In this document: in pieces, positions 3,950-35,582 of the stretch
How the letters are laid out: every line of letters begins with the position of its first letter
How positions within the stretch are numbered: the stretch's first letter is position 1
DNA from: a virus
Virus record (IMG/VR): IMGVR_UViG_3300007735_000793
Coordinates: 1 to 64,000 of that record
Strand: one strand, 5' to 3'
Length of the DNA stretch: 64,000 nt
The notes under the pieces: model-generated
The model's input: the letters and a program-made list of their open reading frames with translations, nothing else
What the model was told of the DNA's origin: nothing
Database searches by the model: none
Made by a program: the position numbers and the translations under genes

Positions 3950-5113
3950 CTATCCTACATAAATTGGTAATGGAATACGGGTAAGTGATGATTCCAAAAA
4001 TTCAGTTTCATCCTTTTTTGCTTCCAAAAGGGCTCTTCTGCTCGTTGCCTCCAACATCTCCCTAATTTGAGTTATCAATGTTTCTTTTTCAGTTGCAGCC
4101 TGAGTCTTTAAATCAGAACCATCCAATGTTACTTCTGCACCCGGTATGGGTATTGAACTATATTTTGAACGAACCGTCCCTAATACCTCTTTTACCAATG
4201 CAAGTGTGTATTTGAATATCCACTGCCTACCATGTGCGTTTATATCAGAGTAATTCAACCTACCAAATGGAGCATTTGAAAAATCTGAAACAACCCCAGA
4301 TTTTGCTATTGGGTTATTCCGTTCTGAATCTAATGTATACTCAAAGTGTATTTTTGTTTGATTGTATAAATCGGATGGGATAGGGAATACTCTAATTCGT
4401 TTCCCATATATTTTAAACCCATATTGAGATTTTCTAATTTTATCGTTGAATTCAATCGCCTGCAATCTAAGTAGGTCATCATACATAGGTTGCATTAAAA
4501 ACGATACACCTGGTGAGTAATTACCCCATCCAAAGGTTTCCATCATTTGCTGCGAACCCATACCTGTCCCTATAAATGGGTCGAAGTAACGAACAATTGC
4601 GGGTGGATTTTCATGATAAACTTTACGAATGGTTATGCTATCAGTTGATAAGTTACCTGCTTCTAAGTTTGTAATAGAACTATCACTCAAATCATATATT
4701 TGCTTACCACCCTGCATTGAAAATGAACCGGTGTAATACGATAACCTACCACCAGTTGATGCTTCAGTTCCATAGTCAAGAGCAAGGTTTATAATACCAC
4801 TAAAATTATTATTTATTAATTTCCCGCTCAAATTGTTGGTCAATAGTGAACCCTGTAAGCTCAACATATTTTCCTTTGTCCGATACTGATTTAATTGGGA
4901 TGAAAACTCATCCACCGCCTCCTCAAAACATGCGTAAAAATCTATATCCTGCAGTTCAATATCTACCAATGGGTAACCAAGCCTTAAAGCAGACCATTTT
5001 GTTACCGAATCAGCATCAACCTGAAAATCATAATCATTATCAAACCACCCAAAAGGGGTTTTACCTGGAAAGAATGATGATGAGCCAGGATATATTGAGA
5101 TATTAACTGCCAT
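3950..5113 (-). CDS. gp13: Neck protein (gp13-like)
   Basis: 387 residues, longer than T4 gp13 (309). Residues about 39-75 hold LRLGYPLVDIELQDIDFYAC, matching the T4 gp13 opening LGAPIINVELTPDQIYDCI. The C-terminal third has HGRQWIFKYTLALVKEVLG and PGAEVTLDGSDLKTQAATEK, matching the gp13 segment W(V)KDYATALAKE...PGGVTIDGQRLIEEA. The protein ends in PLPIYVG, like the T4 ending PFGILVG. gp13 binds gp14 and the portal to close the filled head. Confidence 0.85.
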   Translation of the reverse strand: MAVNISIYPGSSSFFPGKTPFGWFDNDYDFQVDADSVTKWSALRLGYPLVDIELQDIDFYACFEEAVDEFSSQLNQYRTKENMLSLQGSLLTNNLSGKLINNNFSGIINLALDYGTEASTGGRLSYYTGSFSMQGGKQIYDLSDSSITNLEAGNLSTDSITIRKVYHENPPAIVRYFDPFIGTGMGSQQMMETFGWGNYSPGVSFLMQPMYDDLLRLQAIEFNDKIRKSQYGFKIYGKRIRVFPIPSDLYNQTKIHFEYTLDSERNNPIAKSGVVSDFSNAPFGRLNYSDINAHGRQWIFKYTLALVKEVLGTVRSKYSSIPIPGAEVTLDGSDLKTQAATEKETLITQIREMLEATSRRALLEAKKDETEFLESSLTRIPLPIYVG

Positions 5114-23652: not shown

Positions 23653-24840
23653 TTATAATAACCAACTTAAATCAACATCATTACCACGAACATCCTTCAT
23701 TGAGTAAGGATTTTGCTGATATGCGTTGTTAGAATACACTCCCTTATCACCTGATACTTTGATTATACTACCCAATGTGCTACGAGTTAAGTCCATACCT
23801 TGCTTTCGTAATTTTAAAGCAGTATCTCTTACCCATAAACCAGTTGAAAATGATATTACCAAATCATCATTGTAACCCCGTTGTGCTTCTGCCTTTGAAC
23901 CATTCCAAATAAAGACAAATAACTCATCTAACAATCTTTTAGAGTGAATTATTGGAGATTTTTCTCTCATATAAGTATCTAATTTAGACACTATTAGAGG
24001 ACGAGTTCTTTGGGTCATTGAAAATCCTGGCACCATATCCTCTTTTAATTTTAGGTCCCATCCCCTCCGCAGATGAATATCATCATCCACATAACCCAAC
24101 TCCCTATATGAATAATAAAGGTTTTGATAATTACGGTCAATTGCCTCCTGAATAACTGCCCACCCAATGTTTGCATTCTCAATTACCAAAAGAGCATTGT
24201 TCCATTCCGTTGCAACTGATGTTAAGAATGCCCCATATTGCTTTGTTTCTATCTTACCCCTATACTCTGCCACCTGTTCAACTCGTTCCACATCAATAAC
24301 ATGAAAAGCAGAGTAATCCGCACCATCACCCCTTGCAACATCCGCAACCACAACATAATCTTTTTCGTAATTTGGATAATCCCATATCCAATAGTTTGCA
24401 TCAAACCCACGCTTTTCAACCGGTTCGGTGATGTAGGTTTCCCTATACCACTCCAAAACGCTACCATCTACAACGGTATAACCTGATGATATGAAATCGC
24501 AATTATGTGATACAACGCCATCTACATTAAATATATTACCCCCACAAACCTCAACAATATCATACAATGTAGTGTCCATATCAGTACATTCAATAGATAC
24601 CACATCAACATACCGATTATCAGCTGATGATATTTTAGAACCTATTACCAAATCGGAAGCCAATATCTTTTCACCATCCAACATAAATGAGTGGTTATCT
24701 GAACATTTTAGTGTTTTTCCGTTTGAAAAGGTTATTGTATAAATTGAGGTCTTGTTTAAGCATCTCATTCCACCAAATGGTTGAAAACCGCTTGGTGTCA
24801 TTATTTCAAACCTATTATTTGCTTTAAATCTATAGTTCAT
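23653..24840 (-). CDS. gp17: Large terminase C-terminal half with C-intein (gp17-like nuclease domain)
   Basis: 395 residues. Residues 1-113 are a C-intein: block B-like TFSNGKTLKCSDNHSFM, block F-like LYDIVEVCGGNIFNVDG and block G VVSHN, followed by Cys114 as +1 residue. Residues 114-395 are the terminase RNase H-type nuclease: VVVADVARGDGADYSAFHVID (first Asp), LVIENANIG (Glu) and GYNDDLVISFSTG (last acidic pair). Protein splicing with the product of 25612-26436 would give ...AAQECD-CDFISSGYTVV..., a continuous terminase of about 526 residues. The ATG lies inside the end of the homing endonuclease gene. Confidence 0.92.
   Translation of the reverse strand: MNYRFKANNRFEIMTPSGFQPFGGMRCLNKTSIYTITFSNGKTLKCSDNHSFMLDGEKILASDLVIGSKISSADNRYVDVVSIECTDMDTTLYDIVEVCGGNIFNVDGVVSHNCDFISSGYTVVDGSVLEWYRETYITEPVEKRGFDANYWIWDYPNYEKDYVVVADVARGDGADYSAFHVIDVERVEQVAEYRGKIETKQYGAFLTSVATEWNNALLVIENANIGWAVIQEAIDRNYQNLYYSYRELGYVDDDIHLRRGWDLKLKEDMVPGFSMTQRTRPLIVSKLDTYMREKSPIIHSKRLLDELFVFIWNGSKAEAQRGYNDDLVISFSTGLWVRDTALKLRKQGMDLTRSTLGSIIKVSGDKGVYSNNAYQQNPYSMKDVRGNDVDLSWLL
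24502..24840 (-). other. C-intein (113 residues) of atypically split terminase intein
   Basis: Carries splicing blocks B, F and G. It ends His-Asn before Cys, the canonical C-terminal junction. The length and opening (a short charged lead then IMTPSGFQPFGG) resemble the known AceL-TerL intein C-fragment (ILSPNGFSNFNG), as recalled from established knowledge. Confidence 0.9.
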
Positions 24841-25570
24841 TATGTTTTACTCTGATAAAGTTACATGCTAACAATTTCTCTATTTCATATTGGCGTATTA
24901 AATCTTTTTGTTTAAGTTTACCATTTTCATCAAAGTGGTGTTTTTCATCGTATTCTATTACAATATTTTTTTCCTTACTATATCCATCGACAAAGTAACC
25001 AAGTTCTTTTATGTAGTATTCACCACCATTTTCAGCATGTTGTAAGTCGGTTATGCCTAATTTTTTTGCAGCTTTCTCAATTTCCGTAATTGAGTTATAG
25101 TTGTATCTTGGAACAGCCTTACCTTTTAGATTTTCAATATATTTTAATGTAGATAATCTCATTTTATTTTTAGTGGCATTTGTATGTTTTTTACCAAAAA
25201 ACGATTTTTTTGGTTCTGGGCACTGCCTACAATATTTTACCCAATTGTAAACTTTTCCGCATTCACATTTTAGTTTTTCCAAATCACCATTATTTTCTGC
25301 CAAAAAAATCATTCGATACTTAAAGTTGTATTTTCCCTTATATGTGTTTTGTGCTTTTAGGGTATCTTCGAGAAGCTGCGTATGATAGTAAATTGATTTA
25401 TATAATTTTGGGTTTTCACATATCATTGTTCTATTTTTAGCTCTACCAAAATAATTTTTATAATAATATTCCCCCAATAGCAGTTGAATTGTATCTTCAA
25501 TTGAATATAATTCCGATATACTATCTATATTACTTTTTATTTTTTTCCAACCATCTTTTATATACTGCAT
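24830..25570 (-). CDS. Free-standing homing endonuclease (EDxHD / Vsr-like) inside split terminase
   Basis: 246 residues. The mid-region has a four-Cys zinc ribbon (CECGK ... YCRQCP, about residues 108-125) and a NUMOD3-type DNA-binding motif FFGKKHTNATKNKM. The C terminus carries the nuclease pattern GYFVDGYSKEKNIVIEYDEK with HH after it, then KDLIRQYEIEKLLACNFIRV, typical of the EDxHD/Vsr-like group known in split-intein loci. It probably cuts intein-less terminase genes to spread the locus. It overlaps the C-intein start by 11 bases and has its own promoter-like octamer upstream. Confidence 0.88.
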   Translation of the reverse strand: MQYIKDGWKKIKSNIDSISELYSIEDTIQLLLGEYYYKNYFGRAKNRTMICENPKLYKSIYYHTQLLEDTLKAQNTYKGKYNFKYRMIFLAENNGDLEKLKCECGKVYNWVKYCRQCPEPKKSFFGKKHTNATKNKMRLSTLKYIENLKGKAVPRYNYNSITEIEKAAKKLGITDLQHAENGGEYYIKELGYFVDGYSKEKNIVIEYDEKHHFDENGKLKQKDLIRQYEIEKLLACNFIRVKHNEL

Positions 25571-25598
25571 AAGCCCCTTTCATTCGCACTCTTGTGTT

Positions 25599-25606
25599 AA
25601 TAAATA
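25599..25606 (-). promoter_or_regulatory. Candidate phage promoter element TATTTATT
   Basis: In the 41-base gap after the N-terminal terminase half, 28 bases before the homing endonuclease ATG. It would let the endonuclease and C-terminal terminase half be transcribed apart from the N-terminal half. Confidence 0.5.
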
Positions 25607-25611
25607 TGAAA

Positions 25612-26436
25612 TTATAATTTATTATATAACTCAAATAAGGATATTTCACAAATTTCACCTGTATGGGTATCTTTTACAACCACATTTGAATCACCCCACA
25701 AGCAATCGCATTCTTGAGCAGCACCTTTTTCACCCAATAATCGGGTTTGCTCATCTCTCCACCGTTTACTTCTTTCAGGATGAACCGTCCAATGTAACCT
25801 TGTAGGATGCCACTTATCACCACTTTCCCCCTGCAACCATATTTTATGAAAAAAGTTACCTACTCCATTGGGTGTTGAAAGAACAATAGCACCACCACCC
25901 GTTGAAAGTGTGGATTGCGCTGATAACCATATTTCCTCAATACCTTTGATAAAAGCGGCCTCATCAATAATCAATAACGACAGTGCTTCAGAACGTCCTG
26001 CCGTTTCAGTTGCGGATACTGCTTTAATTTGAGAACCATTTTTCAATCTAAGCGATAGCTTGTTATCTTCAGCGGCAGCAACTTTTAACCAACTTGGTAG
26101 ATTATCATACATAAACCTAACTTTGGTTACAAGGTTTTTTGCAACATCCTGGTTAGTTGCAATTACAAGTATGTTTTTATCCCGCTGAAATATCATCAAC
26201 CACAATGAATACCCCGCCGATATGGTTGATATACCCAATTGGCGCGATTTAAGAATAACATTGAATCGGTGATTTTTAAAATCATCAATAAGGTTTTCTT
26301 GAAAATCGTAAAGGTTGAATAGTATCTTACCTTTATGCGGATGTTGTATGTAACAATACTTTTTGAAAAAATATATAGGGTCTGTAGCGCATTTTACATA
26401 CTCATCCGATATTATTTCTTTAAGGCTTTTTGACAT
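25612..26436 (-). CDS. gp17: Large terminase N-terminal half with N-intein (gp17-like ATPase domain)
   Basis: 274 residues. Residues 1-244 are the packaging ATPase: Q-motif region NLYDFQENLIDDF, Walker A variant VILKSRQLGIST near 59-71, Walker B LSLLIIDEAAF near 153-162 and coupling motif IVLSTPNG near 184. Residues 245-274 are a 30-residue N-intein beginning CLWGDSNVVVKDTHTG (block A only). The stop directly after it splits the intein before block B. The ATPase drives DNA into the prohead, and the nuclease half encoded at 23653-24840 must be joined by trans-splicing or act as a partner. Confidence 0.93.
   Translation of the reverse strand: MSKSLKEIISDEYVKCATDPIYFFKKYCYIQHPHKGKILFNLYDFQENLIDDFKNHRFNVILKSRQLGISTISAGYSLWLMIFQRDKNILVIATNQDVAKNLVTKVRFMYDNLPSWLKVAAAEDNKLSLRLKNGSQIKAVSATETAGRSEALSLLIIDEAAFIKGIEEIWLSAQSTLSTGGGAIVLSTPNGVGNFFHKIWLQGESGDKWHPTRLHWTVHPERSKRWRDEQTRLLGEKGAAQECDCLWGDSNVVVKDTHTGEICEISLFELYNKL
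25615..25704 (-). other. N-intein (30 residues) of atypically split terminase intein
   Basis: Starts with Cys245, the splicing nucleophile, and contains block A only. It is comparable in size and shape to the 25-residue N-fragment of AceL-TerL (CVYGDTMVETEDG...). The extein before it ends QECD. Confidence 0.9.
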
Positions 26437-29176: not shown

Positions 29177-31261
29177 TTAAATTCTGACTTTTTTTTTACT
29201 TTCACCCAATGGGTTTCCGTTCACATTCAACTCACCATTCAAATAGTGTTTTGCGTTTACCATCAGCTCTTTGGCACGAATGATATCCGATTGCCACCAA
29301 TGGGGAAAATCAACTTCTTCATCGGTATTATCAAATTGTTTTAACATCTCACCCAATTCGGTCGCATATTTTACTATACGATATAAATCAGCTCTTAACA
29401 TATTTGGTTCATCATCTTGATGCCCCAAATCAATATCTTCAGTTAGGGTTTTTAATTTTTTCAATTTTGCTGTTAAATCAGCCATTTTCTTCAAATGTGC
29501 CGTTTGCTTTGGAGTTCTATCGTTTTGTGGTATTTTGGTAAATGCAGCAGTATCTTTGGCGTTATCTTTTAATGTTTTCTGAATTTTTAACATCTCCCGC
29601 TTTTGCGCTACTTGCTCTTTACCTGCTTTTCTAATTGATGAAGCAGATGGTTCTTCATCATCATCTATTTCGTTTATAACGGGGTATTTCTTTCCACCAA
29701 ACTCAAACTCACTCAACCCTTGCTTTCTTGCATTGAAAAGTGCCCCAGTGAACGCATTACCTTCGTTTATGTTATCCTGTGCCAAAATCATTACATCATC
29801 CAAAGTGCTTGTAACAGGCCCATTCATTGTTCTGATTGTTACTTTGTTACCCTGCACTTTAAGCACCATTCCGGTTTTGTTTTTGGACTTTAAGTGAACA
29901 AAATCACCACGCTCAAAGCCTAAATCTCGTTTTGCCTCATTTACACCATCTTGTGCCAAAATCATTACATCATCCAAAGTGCTTGTAACAGGCCCATTCA
30001 TTGTTCTGATTGTTACTTTGTTACCCTGCACTTTAAGCACCATTCCGGTTTTGTTTTTGGACTTTAAGTGAACAAAATCACCACGCTCAAAGCCTAAATC
30101 TCGTTTACCTTCGTTTTTGGGTTGTCCAAATTTACTTAATATTTTAAATGCGGTTGATTGCATTTTTAATAAGCCTGAATTAACAAACTTATCTTTGTTA
30201 CCAGATTGATTTAACCCATCATATACACTAATAATAGCAGATGCAGAATAACTATCAACTCGCATCTTTCTACCTGTTGCAGGGTCTGTTAATACCTTTG
30301 AACCTGATTTTACAATATCTCTTAACTGAGAAATGATTTTAGGGTCATTCTTTGCTTCATTTACAACAGACTCTTCAGTTCTCCAACCACCACCTGCATC
30401 CTTATATTGTTTCGCAGCCCAAGCATTGGCATATGCTGAATTGCCTGTTATAGTAAACCAGCCATTTTGCATCATAACCCAAGTTTTATTATCAGTTTCA
30501 GGACACCAAACATTCTCTCTTTCACCCAATTGAGTTTTTATAACATTTTGACTTCCATGAGTTTTCTTACCCCTAATTATAGTAACACTAACAACATCAT
30601 TATCAAAATCATTTACAGATACATAATAACCATTCAAATAAGCAGCATATATTGTTGCTAACAAATGGTCTCTATTTTTTTGAGAAAATCCAAAAGTTCT
30701 TCGGCCAACCGCTTTAGTAGATTTACCTTTTTCCCACCCATCATAAACTATGGCACTACTTAACCAAATTTCTCTTTGCTGTGTTGACATTTTTACAATT
30801 TTTTCAACCCAAGAATCGTGCTTTCCCCAATTTTCATTTATCAAATTTAAATCAGTATCGTTTTGCATTGTAGATGAAAATACAATTCTCATATGAGTTG
30901 TTATATCTTTTGCTTCAACCAATTCAGGAGTTCTATTTTCATCACGCCTTATAACCCATTTGTGATTTGGAGTACACCTAAATCTAAATCCTGTTGCTTT
31001 TTTTATTTCCATAAGTGGCGCATCTTCAAAATAATGTATATTTTTTATGGGCGACCATTCAAGATTATCCTTTTCTAAATTGTATGTAAGTATATCTTCT
31101 CCAACTTCTAACTCATCATATGATTTTAACCCATCTTTTGTAACCGCAAGCGAATCAAGAGGAACACATGGGTAAACGTCAAACTTTTTCTTTGCTTGCG
31201 ATTTATAATAAGACCATTTTGATGGGTCTGTTGGAACATTTTTTTCTATTAGTAGTTTCAT
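29177..31261 (-). CDS. Modular phage protein interrupted by a contiguous intein
   Basis: 694 residues as translated, 451 after splicing. Residues 1-31 end KKKFDVYP, residues 32-274 are the intein, and SAYANAWAAKQYK resumes at 275. The rejoined motif YPSAYANAW is widespread in phage and some bacterial proteins of unknown function. After it come a two-copy 58-residue KOW-like module (FERGDFVHLKSKNKTGMVL), an EGNAF...GGKKYPV module like those in the 442-residue head protein, and a helical C terminus. Junctions read VNEA, VNEA and INEG, resembling gp21 sites. An internal virion role is inferred. Confidence 0.8.
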   Translation of the reverse strand: MKLLIEKNVPTDPSKWSYYKSQAKKKFDVYPCVPLDSLAVTKDGLKSYDELEVGEDILTYNLEKDNLEWSPIKNIHYFEDAPLMEIKKATGFRFRCTPNHKWVIRRDENRTPELVEAKDITTHMRIVFSSTMQNDTDLNLINENWGKHDSWVEKIVKMSTQQREIWLSSAIVYDGWEKGKSTKAVGRRTFGFSQKNRDHLLATIYAAYLNGYYVSVNDFDNDVVSVTIIRGKKTHGSQNVIKTQLGERENVWCPETDNKTWVMMQNGWFTITGNSAYANAWAAKQYKDAGGGWRTEESVVNEAKNDPKIISQLRDIVKSGSKVLTDPATGRKMRVDSYSASAIISVYDGLNQSGNKDKFVNSGLLKMQSTAFKILSKFGQPKNEGKRDLGFERGDFVHLKSKNKTGMVLKVQGNKVTIRTMNGPVTSTLDDVMILAQDGVNEAKRDLGFERGDFVHLKSKNKTGMVLKVQGNKVTIRTMNGPVTSTLDDVMILAQDNINEGNAFTGALFNARKQGLSEFEFGGKKYPVINEIDDDEEPSASSIRKAGKEQVAQKREMLKIQKTLKDNAKDTAAFTKIPQNDRTPKQTAHLKKMADLTAKLKKLKTLTEDIDLGHQDDEPNMLRADLYRIVKYATELGEMLKQFDNTDEEVDFPHWWQSDIIRAKELMVNAKHYLNGELNVNGNPLGESKKKVRI
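29778..29932. repeat. 155-bp perfect direct repeat, copy 1
   Basis: Identical base for base to 29952-30106. The period is 174 bp (58 codons), so the duplication is in frame. It encodes the KOW-like module. Confidence 0.95.
29952..30106. repeat. 155-bp perfect direct repeat, copy 2
   Basis: Partner of 29778-29932. The lack of any third-position change implies a very recent duplication or ongoing conversion. Confidence 0.95.
30440..31168 (-). other. Contiguous intein (243 residues) with degenerate endonuclease region
   Basis: Block A CVPLDSLAVTKDG starts at residue 32, and block B is RFRCTPNHKWVI with the TxxH motif. The middle (IWLSSAIVYDGWEKG ... LATIYAAYLNGYYVS) looks like the remains of a LAGLIDADG-type domain. 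The C-terminal blocks are VWCPETDNKTWVMMQNG and FTITGN, then Ser275. The penultimate residue is Gly where His is usual, a variant known in phage inteins ending GN. Confidence 0.88.
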
Positions 31262-31859: not shown

Positions 31860-32261
31860 TTATGCACCAGTTTTAACAAAAATCGGAGTTTGCCCCTTTG
31901 ATTGTTCACCGCCCTTTTTAGCATCCCCTGCTTTCTTTTGAGCAGCCCTTTTTCGTTTTACAAACTTAGCCCTTCCTTCCGGTCCTAACTTATTAGCTTT
32001 TTCTTTAGAAAGACATGCTGAGTATGCTTCACCTTCTTCCGCATCCCCACACTTACCCAACTTTTTGCCGGTGGTAGAATACCTATCCCAACCACCACCT
32101 GATGTTGAACCGGTCTTACCCTTACCAAACCACTTTCTTAAATCCTCTCTGATAATTTCTCTTACTACAATTTGGATTAATTCTCTAAGTTGTTGTTTCT
32201 TGTTCAAGTTCTTTCTCCAATTTTTCGATATATTCCTCACGCAACTTTTCAAAATCGGCAT
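31860..32261 (-). CDS. Small basic protein, DUF5872-like
   Basis: 133 residues from the first ATG. That start lies well inside the upstream gene, and a TTG at about 32207 (NKKQQLRELIQ...) is a plausible alternative giving ~115 residues with a propeptide-like helix LRELIQIVVREIIRED. The body, DLRKWFGKGKTGSTSGGGWD, then KLGKCG, AYSACLSKEKANKLGPEG and VKRKRAAQ, matches a short Gly/Cys/Lys domain common in aquatic phages. The function is unknown. Its strong basic charge would suit DNA or capsid-interior contact. Confidence 0.68.
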   Translation of the reverse strand: MPILKSCVRNISKNWRKNLNKKQQLRELIQIVVREIIREDLRKWFGKGKTGSTSGGGWDRYSTTGKKLGKCGDAEEGEAYSACLSKEKANKLGPEGRAKFVKRKRAAQKKAGDAKKGGEQSKGQTPIFVKTGA

Positions 32262-32784
32262 CTATTTTAGACAAAACTGCTTCAATATCAACCCCATTCC
32301 ATTCCTCAACCGAACCATTTTCGTTGATAAACTTCATTTTTAGCGCAACTTTAAGAGCATCCTTTTCAAATTGAGCCTGCTTTAACCATGCTTTCGCATT
32401 CTCCAGCATTTTCTTTTTTTCATACCTATCATACTCCCCACTCATTCGTAATTTTGATTCCATACTCAATACACAATCAAAACACATACCATGAAAAGCA
32501 CGCATTTTTTCATCTAACCTCTTTGGGTTTTTGCATTCGCAGGTTTCCTTCATACAATTAGGGAACTTTTTCAAGTCCTGCCTAAGCTGATGAAGCTTAC
32601 CGAGTTTTACTTTATACCCGGCTTTCTGCTCCCACATATCCCCATTTGTATCCTGCCATTGTTCACCTACTTCCCGACGAACATAACCTGATGTTTCTTC
32701 AAACCCAATAGTTGTTTTTGTTTGGGTTCGGTGTACACCATCCAACATCTCCGAAACCGCTTTTGTATTTTTTAACTTGCTCAT
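32185..32784 (-). CDS. Unknown protein with possible zinc site
   Basis: 199 residues. A Cys cluster, CMKETCEC near residue 77 and GMCFDCVLS near 98, gives five closely spaced Cys and suggests a zinc-binding knuckle. The N-terminal part reads MLDGVHRTQTKTTIGFE, and the C-terminal ~60 residues form a charged coiled coil ending LEKELEQETTT. Genes of this look occur in T4-type phage late regions, but I cannot name a function. Its 3' end overlaps the next gene by about 77 bases if that gene's first ATG is used. Confidence 0.68.
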   Translation of the reverse strand: MSKLKNTKAVSEMLDGVHRTQTKTTIGFEETSGYVRREVGEQWQDTNGDMWEQKAGYKVKLGKLHQLRQDLKKFPNCMKETCECKNPKRLDEKMRAFHGMCFDCVLSMESKLRMSGEYDRYEKKKMLENAKAWLKQAQFEKDALKVALKMKFINENGSVEEWNGVDIEAVLSKIDADFEKLREEYIEKLEKELEQETTT

Positions 32785-32810: not shown

Positions 32811-33995
32811 TTAATAGAATAAACCCAAAATTTGATTAAGTGGGGCGAAAGTTCCAGTTAACTTGAGCGTCATACCTTTGTATACAAAAACTATTCCCTC
32901 ATTTGGAACAATCTTATCAGGACCACCTATTGTCGCCATTCTTTCAAGCTCTAATTGTAACTTTCTTATCTTTTTTTCATCCCCACCACTTTTAACATCT
33001 TTAATGGTTTGGTCTAATCGTTGTTTCATATTACGAACTGCTTCATCTGGGTTCACTGTCAATACTGAACTCATAAACGATAATACATCTGCGCCAACCC
33101 CTAAAAATATATCTTCAAATGGTCGAATATTATCTTTTGATATTTTTTGATGATCATTCTTATCCACACCCTTCGCCCACTCTAATACCTTATCCGATTT
33201 TATGTTGTTACTATTTAAGACAAAACTTTTGTCGTAGAATGCCCATCTTTTTATCAAACCTTCTCGTGTAAATTTATCTAATTTTTCGGGTGAGTTTTTA
33301 TCTATGTATTCACCCCACCACGCCTGATGATATTCTGCCATACCATCACTATCTTTTAAACCATATTTTGATTGTAGTTTGTTTAACATCCCCAAATACT
33401 TTGATTGTAATTTTTCCAAGTTTATTTCCTTTGGTAGCTGTGTAATAGGTGGTCCTTGTATTGTGTATTTATCCTGCACATTCTGATTGATTTGTTTAAT
33501 CATTCCCGCTAATACCTTTGCATCAGATTGGTCTGCCCCAATCGCAACACCGGATTCATCGTATTCGGTAGTGTTGTGAAACACCAAAAGAGCCTGACCA
33601 TAAGGTATTACATTTACTGATGTTGGATATATCACTTCCAAATTCATAAACTTTGCACCCTGTTTGAAAATCTTATCCCTTTGTGCTTTTGATAATCGCT
33701 TTATTGCCACTTCTAAATCCCGCATAGCAAAGTTGTAAGCATCAGTTAGCCCACCCCTACCTCCGAACTTTGAAGCAACATCTGCGGCGTTCATTGCGTT
33801 TTCACCCCGATTAGCAAGGTGTCCTTTGTTTCTTGCGGCAATTAACCCCTTATCATCTCGCCAACTAATAGCAAGTGCCTGTCCATCTGTATTATGAACC
33901 AATATACCATTTGCGTAATAACATGAAAAATTATCAACTTTTATGTCATACCTGGTCTGAACTTTGTTTACTGGTTTTATTGATTTAATTTTCAT
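32811..33995 (-). CDS. Ligase-like nucleotidyltransferase C-terminal half with C-intein
   Basis: 394 residues. Residues 1-35 are a C-intein (YDIKVDNFSCYYANGILVHN), and Thr36 is the +1 residue. The extein starts TDGQALAISW, which after splicing to ...LTREK gives K-T-D-G, motif I of the DNA/RNA ligase superfamily. Further along, NEGIVFVYKGMTLKLTGTF supplies motif IV (EGIVF) and motif V (KLTG). The family resembles a conserved T4-type aquatic phage protein (DUF6267-like by memory). It may be an RNA- or DNA-repair nucleotidyltransferase, with the substrate unknown. The half cannot form the active site without the N-terminal half. Confidence 0.85.
   Translation of the reverse strand: MKIKSIKPVNKVQTRYDIKVDNFSCYYANGILVHNTDGQALAISWRDDKGLIAARNKGHLANRGENAMNAADVASKFGGRGGLTDAYNFAMRDLEVAIKRLSKAQRDKIFKQGAKFMNLEVIYPTSVNVIPYGQALLVFHNTTEYDESGVAIGADQSDAKVLAGMIKQINQNVQDKYTIQGPPITQLPKEINLEKLQSKYLGMLNKLQSKYGLKDSDGMAEYHQAWWGEYIDKNSPEKLDKFTREGLIKRWAFYDKSFVLNSNNIKSDKVLEWAKGVDKNDHQKISKDNIRPFEDIFLGVGADVLSFMSSVLTVNPDEAVRNMKQRLDQTIKDVKSGGDEKKIRKLQLELERMATIGGPDKIVPNEGIVFVYKGMTLKLTGTFAPLNQILGLFY
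33891..33995 (-). other. C-intein (35 residues) of canonical split intein
   Basis: Blocks F (TRYDIKVDNFSCYYANG) and G (ILVHN) only, ending His-Asn before Thr. This is the conventional split position used by known split inteins such as gp41-1 and NrdJ-1. Confidence 0.92.
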
Positions 33996-34007
33996 AGTTT
34001 ATTTCCC

Positions 34008-35582
34008 TCAAAGTGTTTTCAATTCCATATCTTCGGTCAAATCTTTAGCCTGAACATATCCTATACCATCTACATACATTCTATGATTTGGGGTTACTTG
34101 AATGGTTTTACCATCTTCCATTTCGATTTCTAACCACTCATCAGTATCATCGTTATTAAAATATGCTATAACATCCATAAATTCACTATTTCCAGTTTCT
34201 TCATTAAATGATAATACCGAATCGGTAAGTTTATTATCTACAAACTCTGATATGGGTATATTTCCATTATTTTTAGTTTGTATAACACTATCACCCGCTA
34301 TGCACTTTTCTCGAGTTAATTCCAAATCACCTTTTAAGGCCTTTGCTATTATGTTTTTTAAATCACCAAAAGTTAAACCCAACTCTAAATCAAACGGATG
34401 ATTCATATGACCGTATGCCCCGCCTTCTGTCAAATAATCGTTGAACTTTCTACCAATTCTTTCTAATAACTTATATTGCTTTCTATCTATTACTTCTAAT
34501 TTTTTTCCAATCACCCATTCAACAACCTCATATCCTAACCCCCTAAATACTTCCTGCAACTCCTTGTCCTCTACACCAGTAATATCAACCTCTACTTCGG
34601 GTGGAGCTTCAGGTGGTGCAACATCCAATGGAGTAGTAGCAATATCAGCAGTTACATAATCTTCCGTTTCGGGTATATCTAAAAGGTCATCCATTGTGAA
34701 TACCTTTCTTCTACTTGCATATTGATAAAAATCACCCGTACCTTTTGCCGATTTTTTAACCATCGCATCTGCTTTTGGAAACTCTATTTGTGTATATCCA
34801 CCACTAACAAACCAATAATCGTTTTTTTGCGCATCTTTACCCAAACCCAATACTCGTTTTTTACCTGGCGGAACATAAATTGCATCAGGCTCACCTGGAT
34901 CTGCACCATATCCACCTCCCAATGATGATTCAATAAGGGGAATTAAATTATACTTACTGAAGAAGTCTGATATAATTTCGTTTACTCCACCCAGCTTTTG
35001 GGTTATCATATTGTATATTTTTGGATTAAATTTTGGATATGCTTTTTTAAATCCCCCTTTTCTTTGTGATTCATCTCCCGCTGATAACCATTTTCTTACA
35101 TCCGTTCCACTTATTGGATTTGGTTGAGCAGGTGATGTATAAACATAACCACTTTCTTCATATCCACTTACAGGTTTAAATCCGGCACCACTATGAAATT
35201 TTTTGAAATATTTACCACCTAATCGTTGTGCATCTTTTTCCCCTACCACAGTTACAAATGCCGTTGTTTGAGGTGAAAATCCACTTAATATTTCAATTGG
35301 ATTATATGGGTTTTTTACCTGCACTACCTTATTCTTTGGAATATTAAACATTGTAGTCATTATTGTTTTTTTCTCCAAAAAATTAAAGGGGTCTTTAGGT
35401 CCACCACTTTTGTTGGATGTCCCAATCCAAACGGCATCCTTACCAAACTTTTGAACTAAATGTGAATAGGTAGCATAATGCCCCTTATGGAAAGGTTGAA
35501 ACCTACCCGCATATACCACCACTATATCTTTGACTTCTTCGGTTAATATCTCTTTAACCCATTCTTTTATTAAATTTCCCAT
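34008..35582 (-). CDS. Cytidylyltransferase-like / ligase-like fusion, N-terminal half with N-intein
   Basis: 524 residues. Residues about 20-190 are an NMN-adenylyltransferase/cytidylyltransferase-type domain: VVVYAGRFQPFHKGHY (HxGH) and the late motif ISGTDVRKWLSAGD. A linker and a Pro-rich stretch (APPEAPPEVEVD) follow. Then TEGGAYGHMNHPFDLELGLT and LKGDLELTREK lead up to the ligase motif I lysine (Lys426). Residues 427-524 are the N-intein. Splicing with the 33995 product restores K|TDG and gives a ~785-residue two-domain enzyme. The start has a promoter-like octamer 3 bases upstream and no obvious ribosome site. Confidence 0.87.
   Translation of the reverse strand: MGNLIKEWVKEILTEEVKDIVVVYAGRFQPFHKGHYATYSHLVQKFGKDAVWIGTSNKSGGPKDPFNFLEKKTIMTTMFNIPKNKVVQVKNPYNPIEILSGFSPQTTAFVTVVGEKDAQRLGGKYFKKFHSGAGFKPVSGYEESGYVYTSPAQPNPISGTDVRKWLSAGDESQRKGGFKKAYPKFNPKIYNMITQKLGGVNEIISDFFSKYNLIPLIESSLGGGYGADPGEPDAIYVPPGKKRVLGLGKDAQKNDYWFVSGGYTQIEFPKADAMVKKSAKGTGDFYQYASRRKVFTMDDLLDIPETEDYVTADIATTPLDVAPPEAPPEVEVDITGVEDKELQEVFRGLGYEVVEWVIGKKLEVIDRKQYKLLERIGRKFNDYLTEGGAYGHMNHPFDLELGLTFGDLKNIIAKALKGDLELTREKCIAGDSVIQTKNNGNIPISEFVDNKLTDSVLSFNEETGNSEFMDVIAYFNNDDTDEWLEIEMEDGKTIQVTPNHRMYVDGIGYVQAKDLTEDMELKTL
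34011..34304 (-). other. N-intein (98 residues) of canonical split intein
   Basis: Block A CIAGDSVIQTKNNGNIP begins at Cys427. Block B is GKTIQVTPNHRMYVDGIGYV with the TxxH motif, and the fragment ends DLTEDMELKTL. No endonuclease domain is present. Confidence 0.92.

What the first reader, a model, noticed from the sequence alone, without database searches (positions are those of the whole stretch)
32811..35582. Second split intein inserted inside the KxDG active-site motif of a ligase-like enzyme
Seen: the N-terminal half ends LTREK followed by a 98-residue N-intein. The other half has a 35-residue C-intein ending LVHN, then TDGQ. Splicing restores K-T-D-G, with EGIVF and KLTG motifs later. 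Known: KxDG is motif I of DNA/RNA ligases, where Lys takes the nucleotide. Inference: the enzyme is inactive until trans-splicing, a post-translational switch. It is also fused to an HxGH cytidylyltransferase-type domain, an unusual two-nucleotidyltransferase chain.
Basis: partly seen in the sequence, partly recalled or inferred. Interest (0 to 1): 0.85.

Follow-up and report, generated by a model that had tools for sequence, protein, structure and literature searches.

The report
Mobile split intein in ligase-like enzyme
In this virus of bacteria, a self-removing protein segment has cut the gene of an RNA-ligase-like enzyme in two exactly at its catalytic lysine; comparison with hundreds of relatives shows that the segment is a mobile parasite rather than a regulatory switch, and that it sits in a large family of phage enzymes with no curated annotation.

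Summary
Two minus-strand ORFs, 12 bp apart, carry a 98-aa N-intein after LTREK and a 35-aa C-intein ending HN before TDGQ. The spliced product is 785 aa. Relatives without the intein read straight through as E-K-[T/L/V]-D-G, so the junction is real. The downstream domain is a covalent-nucleotidyltransferase/RNA-ligase-like fold: a confident AlphaFold model (pLDDT 90) puts only RNA and DNA ligases and capping enzymes in its first 35 PDB matches, though none has E<=1e-3 and Pfam, PHROGs and NCBIfam do not recognise it. It is not DUF6267. The N-terminal domain is NMN-adenylyltransferase-like. The 'post-translational switch' is not supported. Eleven other phage loci carry the same split intein at the same site, all with 0.78-0.96 kb between the halves that encodes a homing endonuclease; this window has lost it. 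One occupied and one empty allele have 97% identical extein DNA, and the intein is far less diverged at silent sites than its exteins (dS 0.0-0.3 against 0.7-1.1). This is a 'fractured gene' of known type in a new host gene. The enzyme, sometimes fused to CCA-adding and HD domains and lying in the late operon, most likely repairs RNA ends; that step is inference.

The parts
34305..35582 (-). N-extein, 426 aa: HxGH (NMNAT-like) nucleotidyltransferase domain, linker, and start of the ligase-like domain up to the catalytic Lys (LTREK, 34305-34319)
   Evidence: ORF and translation; Pfam CTP_transf_like 30-31 bits against cut-off 21
35478..35507 (-). GRFQPFHKGH active-site motif of the HxGH nucleotidyltransferase; ISGTDVR follows at 35094-35114
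   Evidence: 70 of 71 family members with this motif also have the ISGTxxR-type motif
34011..34304 (-). N-intein, 98 aa, Cys1 to ...MELKTL, block B TPNH at 34083-34094
33996..34010 (-). Stop TGA and 12-bp spacer (GGGAAATAAACT) with a second in-frame stop TAA and a GAGG ribosome-binding-like site; in relatives a 0.78-0.96 kb stretch with a homing endonuclease gene lies here
33891..33995 (-). C-intein, 35 aa, ending HN
32811..33890 (-). C-extein, 359 aa plus stop: rest of the ligase-like domain. TDG of motif I 33882-33890; AARN 33828-33839; FMNLEV (motif III-like) 33633-33650; EGIVF (motif IV) 32886-32900; KLTG (motif V-like) 32853-32864

Best explanation
A class-1 split intein, descended from a mobile 'fractured gene' cassette (N-intein, free-standing homing endonuclease gene, C-intein), sits between the catalytic Lys and the Thr of motif I (EK|TDG) in a phage enzyme that joins an NMN-adenylyltransferase-like domain to an RNA-ligase-like covalent nucleotidyltransferase domain. 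The halves are translated separately, the intein pieces associate and trans-splice, and the enzyme is restored without a scar; before that the lysine and the rest of its motif are on different chains. The element spread by homing into the most conserved stretch of the gene, where imprecise loss would kill the enzyme. In this window the endonuclease gene has since been deleted. The enzyme itself most likely seals or repairs RNA ends (for example cleaved tRNA) during infection. Shown: anatomy, junction, empty and occupied alleles, endonuclease ORFs in relatives, dS contrast. Strongly suggested: ligase-type fold. Inferred: splicing activity, homing activity, RNA as substrate.
For: Exact anatomy. 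Same split intein at the same K|T site in 11 other loci, including phages whose C-extein is only 62-65% identical (L346, L348) while their C-inteins are 83-89% identical. In all 11 the halves are 0.78-0.96 kb apart; the 244-304 aa ORF there was read in full in six, and those tested match PHROG homing-endonuclease families (best E 3e-10). Its C-terminal ~115 aa are 65-68% identical to the endonuclease in the split terminase gene of the same window. L008 (occupied) and L017 (empty) have 97% identical exteins, dS 0.09-0.13; window versus L008 has intein dS 0.20/0.0 against extein dS 0.95/0.76, Fisher p 4e-7 on silent changes. Window flanks mostly follow the empty allele L016, to within about 8 nt upstream and 18 nt downstream of the insertion. 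Ligase fold: AF2 pLDDT 90.4, pTM 0.85; PDB matches 1-35 are all RNA ligases, DNA ligases or capping enzymes; K38, D40, G41, R58, N59, E123, E369, G370 and K381 invariant across 37 diverse members. CCA-adding and HD domains fused in some members.
Against: No Foldseek PDB match reaches E<=1e-3 (best 4e-3), and TM-scores are about 0.25, partly because of a ~200-residue largely helical insertion between motifs III and IV. Motif V has one Lys (KLTG) instead of KxK. No Pfam, PHROG or NCBIfam ligase model matches. No splicing, homing or ligation was measured.
Confidence: 0.75

Rival explanations
1. Regulatory switch: the split intein is kept because trans-splicing times or limits the enzyme's activity in infection.
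For: Insertion at the catalytic Lys makes both halves presumably inactive; the split persists in the window without the endonuclease, as a domesticated element might.
Against: Near-identical alleles do without it (L017 against L008); occupied alleles are a small minority of the relatives; the others keep an endonuclease; inteins commonly sit in conserved active-site motifs for homing reasons (general knowledge).
Confidence: 0.08
2. The KxDG domain is a covalent nucleotidyltransferase of another kind: an RNA capping-type or protein-modifying enzyme, perhaps using NAD+ or an NMN adduct made by the attached NMNAT-like domain, rather than an RNA ligase.
For: Capping enzymes are also among the structural matches; frequent pairing with an NMNAT-like domain; single Lys in motif V.
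Against: Best matches are RNA ligases (Trl1, archaeal Rnl, T4 Rnl1 and Rnl2); fusion to CCA-adding and HD domains fits RNA-end repair.
Confidence: 0.25
3. The gap between the halves is an assembly or sequencing error and the gene is one ORF with an ordinary cis-splicing intein.
For: The halves are in one frame and only 12 bp apart.
Against: Two in-frame stops and a ribosome-binding-like site would have to be errors; 11 other loci are split too.
Confidence: 0.04
4. The enzyme is a virion-packaged 'polyvalent' protein injected with the DNA, and its nucleotidyltransferases act on host molecules at the very start of infection (compatible with the best explanation for the intein).
For: Gene lies in the late operon, beside tail-fibre genes and before a conserved gene, terminase and portal; variable domain content; PMC5512222 reports phage polyvalent proteins near late virion genes.
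Against: No virion proteomics; T4 rnlA is an RNA ligase gene linked to tail-fibre attachment without injection (general knowledge).
Confidence: 0.3

Closest known systems
'Fractured genes' with split inteins and free-standing homing endonucleases (Dassa et al. 2009, NAR 37:2560; not held in the library, known here by title and from memory)
   Same: Split intein at a conserved site, with a free-standing endonuclease ORF between the halves in relatives
   Different: New host gene and new site (EK|TDG); the window copy has lost the endonuclease and kept a 12-bp in-frame spacer
NrdJ-1 split intein (PDB 8ubs)
   Same: Closest solved N-intein by sequence (E 5.9e-9)
   Different: Host protein is a ribonucleotide reductase; identity is low
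T4 RNA ligase 1, fungal tRNA ligase Trl1, archaeal Rnl (2c5u, 8rbj, 2vug, 8uce)
   Same: KxDG motif I, motif III Glu, motif IV EG, motif V Lys; best structural matches
   Different: No sequence-profile match; ~200-residue largely helical insertion between motifs III and IV; fused to an NMNAT-like domain
NadM / NMN adenylyltransferases (MJ0541 1f9a; 2qjt)
   Same: GRFQPFHxGH and ISGTxxR motifs, sequence match E 1.5e-4 to 2.4e-4
   Different: Fused to a ligase-like domain instead of Nudix or kinase
DUF6267 (PF19782) of cyanophages
   Same: KWDG, EGFV and KLVDR motifs by eye, encoded beside a cytidyltransferase gene in P-RSM6
   Different: No detectable profile relationship to the window family

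Membership tests
Class-1 split intein | Cys1, block B TxxH, penultimate His and terminal Asn, +1 Cys/Ser/Thr | tested here: met
   CIAGDS, TPNH, LVHN, +1 Thr; Pfam Intein_splicing 45.9 bits, cut-off 35.8
Class-1 split intein | Trans-splicing activity | not testable with these tools
   needs co-expression
Fractured gene (Dassa type) | Endonuclease ORF between the split halves | tested here: not met
   Window has 12 bp only; the arrangement is met in relatives, so the window copy is a derived remnant of one
EDxHD (Vsr-like) homing endonuclease | EDxHD catalytic motif in the relatives' ORF | tested here: inconclusive
   PHROG homing-endonuclease match E 3e-10, but no EDxHD-specific profile was available; no PDB sequence match
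Covalent nucleotidyltransferase (ligase/capping) superfamily | Motif I KxDG, motif III Glu, motif IV EG | tested here: met
   Invariant in 37 diverse members; all homologues with the region present keep motif I
Covalent nucleotidyltransferase (ligase/capping) superfamily | Motif V KxK | tested here: not met
   Single invariant Lys, K-x-T-G; so the domain is called ligase-like and is not filed as a ligase
Covalent nucleotidyltransferase (ligase/capping) superfamily | Fold with motif-I Lys in the nucleotide pocket | tested here: inconclusive
   PDB matches 1-35 all of this superfamily, but best E 4e-3; coordinates could not be superposed
Known RNA ligase families (Pfam, NCBIfam, PHROGs) | Profile match | tested here: not met
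DUF6267 (PF19782) | Profile match | tested here: not met
   No match by Pfam scan, genome scan or profile-profile comparison
NMN adenylyltransferase | GRFQPFHxGH and ISxTxxR motifs, CTP_transf_like profile | tested here: met
   substrate not tested

The most novel reading that the evidence does not exclude
An undescribed, widespread phage family of RNA-ligase-like enzymes (more than 570 IMG/VR stretches), built as a modular repair protein (NMNAT-like, HD, CCA-adding and ligase-like domains) encoded in the late operon, perhaps packaged in the virion, that restores tRNA cut by host anticodon nucleases; the NMNAT-like and ligase-like domains may work in series.
Probability: 0.3. Interest if true: 0.8.

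Novelty: new member of a known kind. Interest (0 to 1): 0.52.

Why it matters
The near-identical empty (L017) and occupied (L008) alleles are a clean natural pair for asking whether a split intein at a catalytic residue costs or controls anything. The element family shows four states (empty site, occupied with endonuclease, endonuclease lost, and divergent hosts), which makes the homing cycle of split inteins testable. The larger gain may be the host enzyme: a very common phage domain with no curated family, a ligase-type active site and, in some members, fused tRNA-end-processing domains.

Tried and rejected
DUF6267 as family: rejected by Pfam, genome search and hhalign. PDB sequence searches with the ligase domain and its profiles gave only spurious hits (spike S2, ribosomal eS6). 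A first AF2 model with 26 close relatives was only moderate (pLDDT 76) and its Foldseek list was insignificant, though RNA ligases were ranks 1 and 2; the more diverse alignment solved this. Rfam on L016 and L021 found no intron for the in-frame HNH-like insertion. Literature searches for an intein in an RNA ligase or cytidyltransferase gene of a phage found none, but the library lacks most subscription papers and Dassa 2009. Two collection scans with distant queries found nothing.

Full report
OBSERVATION. The finding is accurate. On the minus strand, ORF 34008-35582 (524 aa) ends in a 98-residue N-intein that starts at Cys427 after LTREK. ORF 32811-33995 (394 aa) starts with a 35-residue C-intein ending LVHN, followed by TDGQ. 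Removal of both intein pieces leaves 785 aa with EKTDG intact. Pfam's intein profile scores 45.9 bits over both pieces (cut-off 35.8). The halves are in the same frame, separated by TGA, 12 bp that contain a second in-frame stop TAA, and a GAGG site before the second ATG. The window belongs to a 97-kb virus record.

JUNCTION TEST. Intein-less relatives read straight through the site: LTREK-TDGQ in L016 and L017, and EK-TDG or EK-LDG in distant ones. The census used an EKxDG pattern, so the loci it left out were checked: they are occupied by the intein, cut by a contig end inside the domain, or were missed by the census for other reasons (L038, L170 and L171 do have EKTDG or EKLDG). The one other case, L056, has a deletion that removes the region. 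So KxDG is a real, invariant motif of the uninterrupted enzyme.

MOBILITY. Eleven other loci carry the same split intein at the same site: L008-L015, L026, L346 and L348. In each the halves are 0.78-0.96 kb apart; six of these gaps were read in full and encode a 244-304 aa protein. Those tested match PHROG homing-endonuclease families. The last ~115 residues are 65-68% identical to the endonuclease lying in the split terminase gene of this same window. The window's 12-bp spacer is therefore best read as endonuclease loss. Between L008 (occupied) and L017 (empty) the exteins are 97% identical in DNA (dS 0.09-0.13). Between the window and L008 the exteins have dS 0.76-0.95, but the intein pieces 0.20 and 0.0; silent differences per conserved codon are 10/124 in the intein against 94/319 in the C-extein, Fisher p = 4e-7. 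At sites where the empty relative L016 and the occupied L010 differ, the window mostly follows L016, from about 8 nt upstream and 18 nt downstream of the insertion outwards, as expected of precise homing with a very short co-converted tract. In L346 and L348 the C-exteins are 62-65% identical to the window but the C-inteins 83-89%. This is a mobile element. Nothing found supports a regulatory role, although unspliced halves are very likely inactive.

ENZYME, C-TERMINAL DOMAIN. No Pfam, PHROG or NCBIfam family matches convincingly. Across 37 diverse members K38, D40, G41, R58, N59, E123, E369, G370 and K381 are invariant: motif I KxDG, AxRN, motif III-like E, motif IV EG[IV]xF, motif V-like K. 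An AlphaFold model from this alignment has pLDDT 90.4 and pTM 0.85. The first 35 PDB matches are all RNA ligases, DNA ligases or capping enzymes (fungal Trl1 first, E 4e-3, probability 0.96; T4 Rnl1 and Rnl2 included); most of the rest listed look unrelated. None reaches E<=1e-3, and TM-scores are low, in part because of a ~200-residue largely helical insertion between motifs III and IV. Motif V lacks the second Lys. I therefore call the domain ligase-like and do not file it in a named ligase family. In the library of viral models the same domain is found in other phage 'cytidyltransferase-like' proteins.

ENZYME, N-TERMINAL DOMAIN. Pfam CTP_transf_like is above its cut-off. GRFQPFHKGH plus ISGTDVR are NMN-adenylyltransferase hallmarks (general knowledge), and the PDB sequence matches of this region are NMNATs. 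70 of the 71 members with the first motif keep the second.

DUF6267. The profile does not match the window protein or three related virus records, and profile-profile comparison is negative. Yet cyanophage P-RSM6 has a DUF6267 gene directly beside a cytidyltransferase gene, and that protein shows KWDG, EGFV and KLVDR.

ARCHITECTURE AND CONTEXT. The family is large: 578 of the first 600 candidate stretches in IMG/VR encode a relative. Some members insert an HD domain and a CCA-adding/poly(A)-polymerase head between the two nucleotidyltransferases (L053, L068, L077); others have HExxH motifs or, as in L007, the ligase-like domain alone. A homologue of the next gene (32185-32784) occurs in 84 of 91 loci examined, downstream of the ligase gene wherever positions were read, and terminase and portal genes follow in many. 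PMC7824862 describes phage RNA-repair sets with ligases and CCA-adding enzymes, and PMC5512222 places multi-domain 'polyvalent' phage proteins near late virion genes. RNA-end repair is my preferred function (about 0.5), with or without packaging in the virion; it is inference.

VERDICT. Confirmed observation, correct ligase-like reading, wrong emphasis on a switch. A new host gene for a known kind of element, in a large uncharacterised phage enzyme family.

Noticed in passing
window 23653-26436 (-): The large terminase gene is also fractured: N-half 25612-26436 ends in a 30-aa N-intein (CLWGDS..., 25704 downwards), endonuclease ORF 24830-25570, C-half 23653-24840 starts with a 113-aa C-intein ending VVSHN. 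The short N-intein recalls the atypical TerL split inteins (from memory).
   Followed up: partly
window 30440-31168 (-), within ORF 29177-31261: A third, contiguous intein of 243 aa (CVPLDS ... TITGN before SAYANAWA) in a predicted protein with SH3-like repeats; three inteins in about 11 kb.
   Followed up: partly
L016 and L021, within the ligase-gene ORF at about residue 385 (L016 about 4085-4870): An open in-frame insertion of about 250 residues that looks like a zinc-finger plus HNH endonuclease, between the two nucleotidyltransferase domains; Rfam finds no intron there.
   Followed up: partly
L056, near 1540-1590: A deletion with frameshift removes the whole KxDG region of the ligase gene (broken copy or assembly error).
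   Followed up: no
L053, L068, L077: HD domain and CCA-adding/poly(A)-polymerase head fused between the NMNAT-like and ligase-like domains.
   Followed up: partly
L258 1208-3484 (cyanophage P-RSM6): DUF6267 protein with KWDG/EGFV/KLVDR motifs encoded directly beside a cytidyltransferase; its relatives occur in 468 phage records, mostly cyanophages, and may themselves be covalent nucleotidyltransferases.
   Followed up: partly
window 32185-32784 (-): A conserved protein of about 200 aa with a Cys-rich (CxC...CxxC) centre that accompanies the ligase gene in 84 of 91 loci; function unknown.
   Followed up: no
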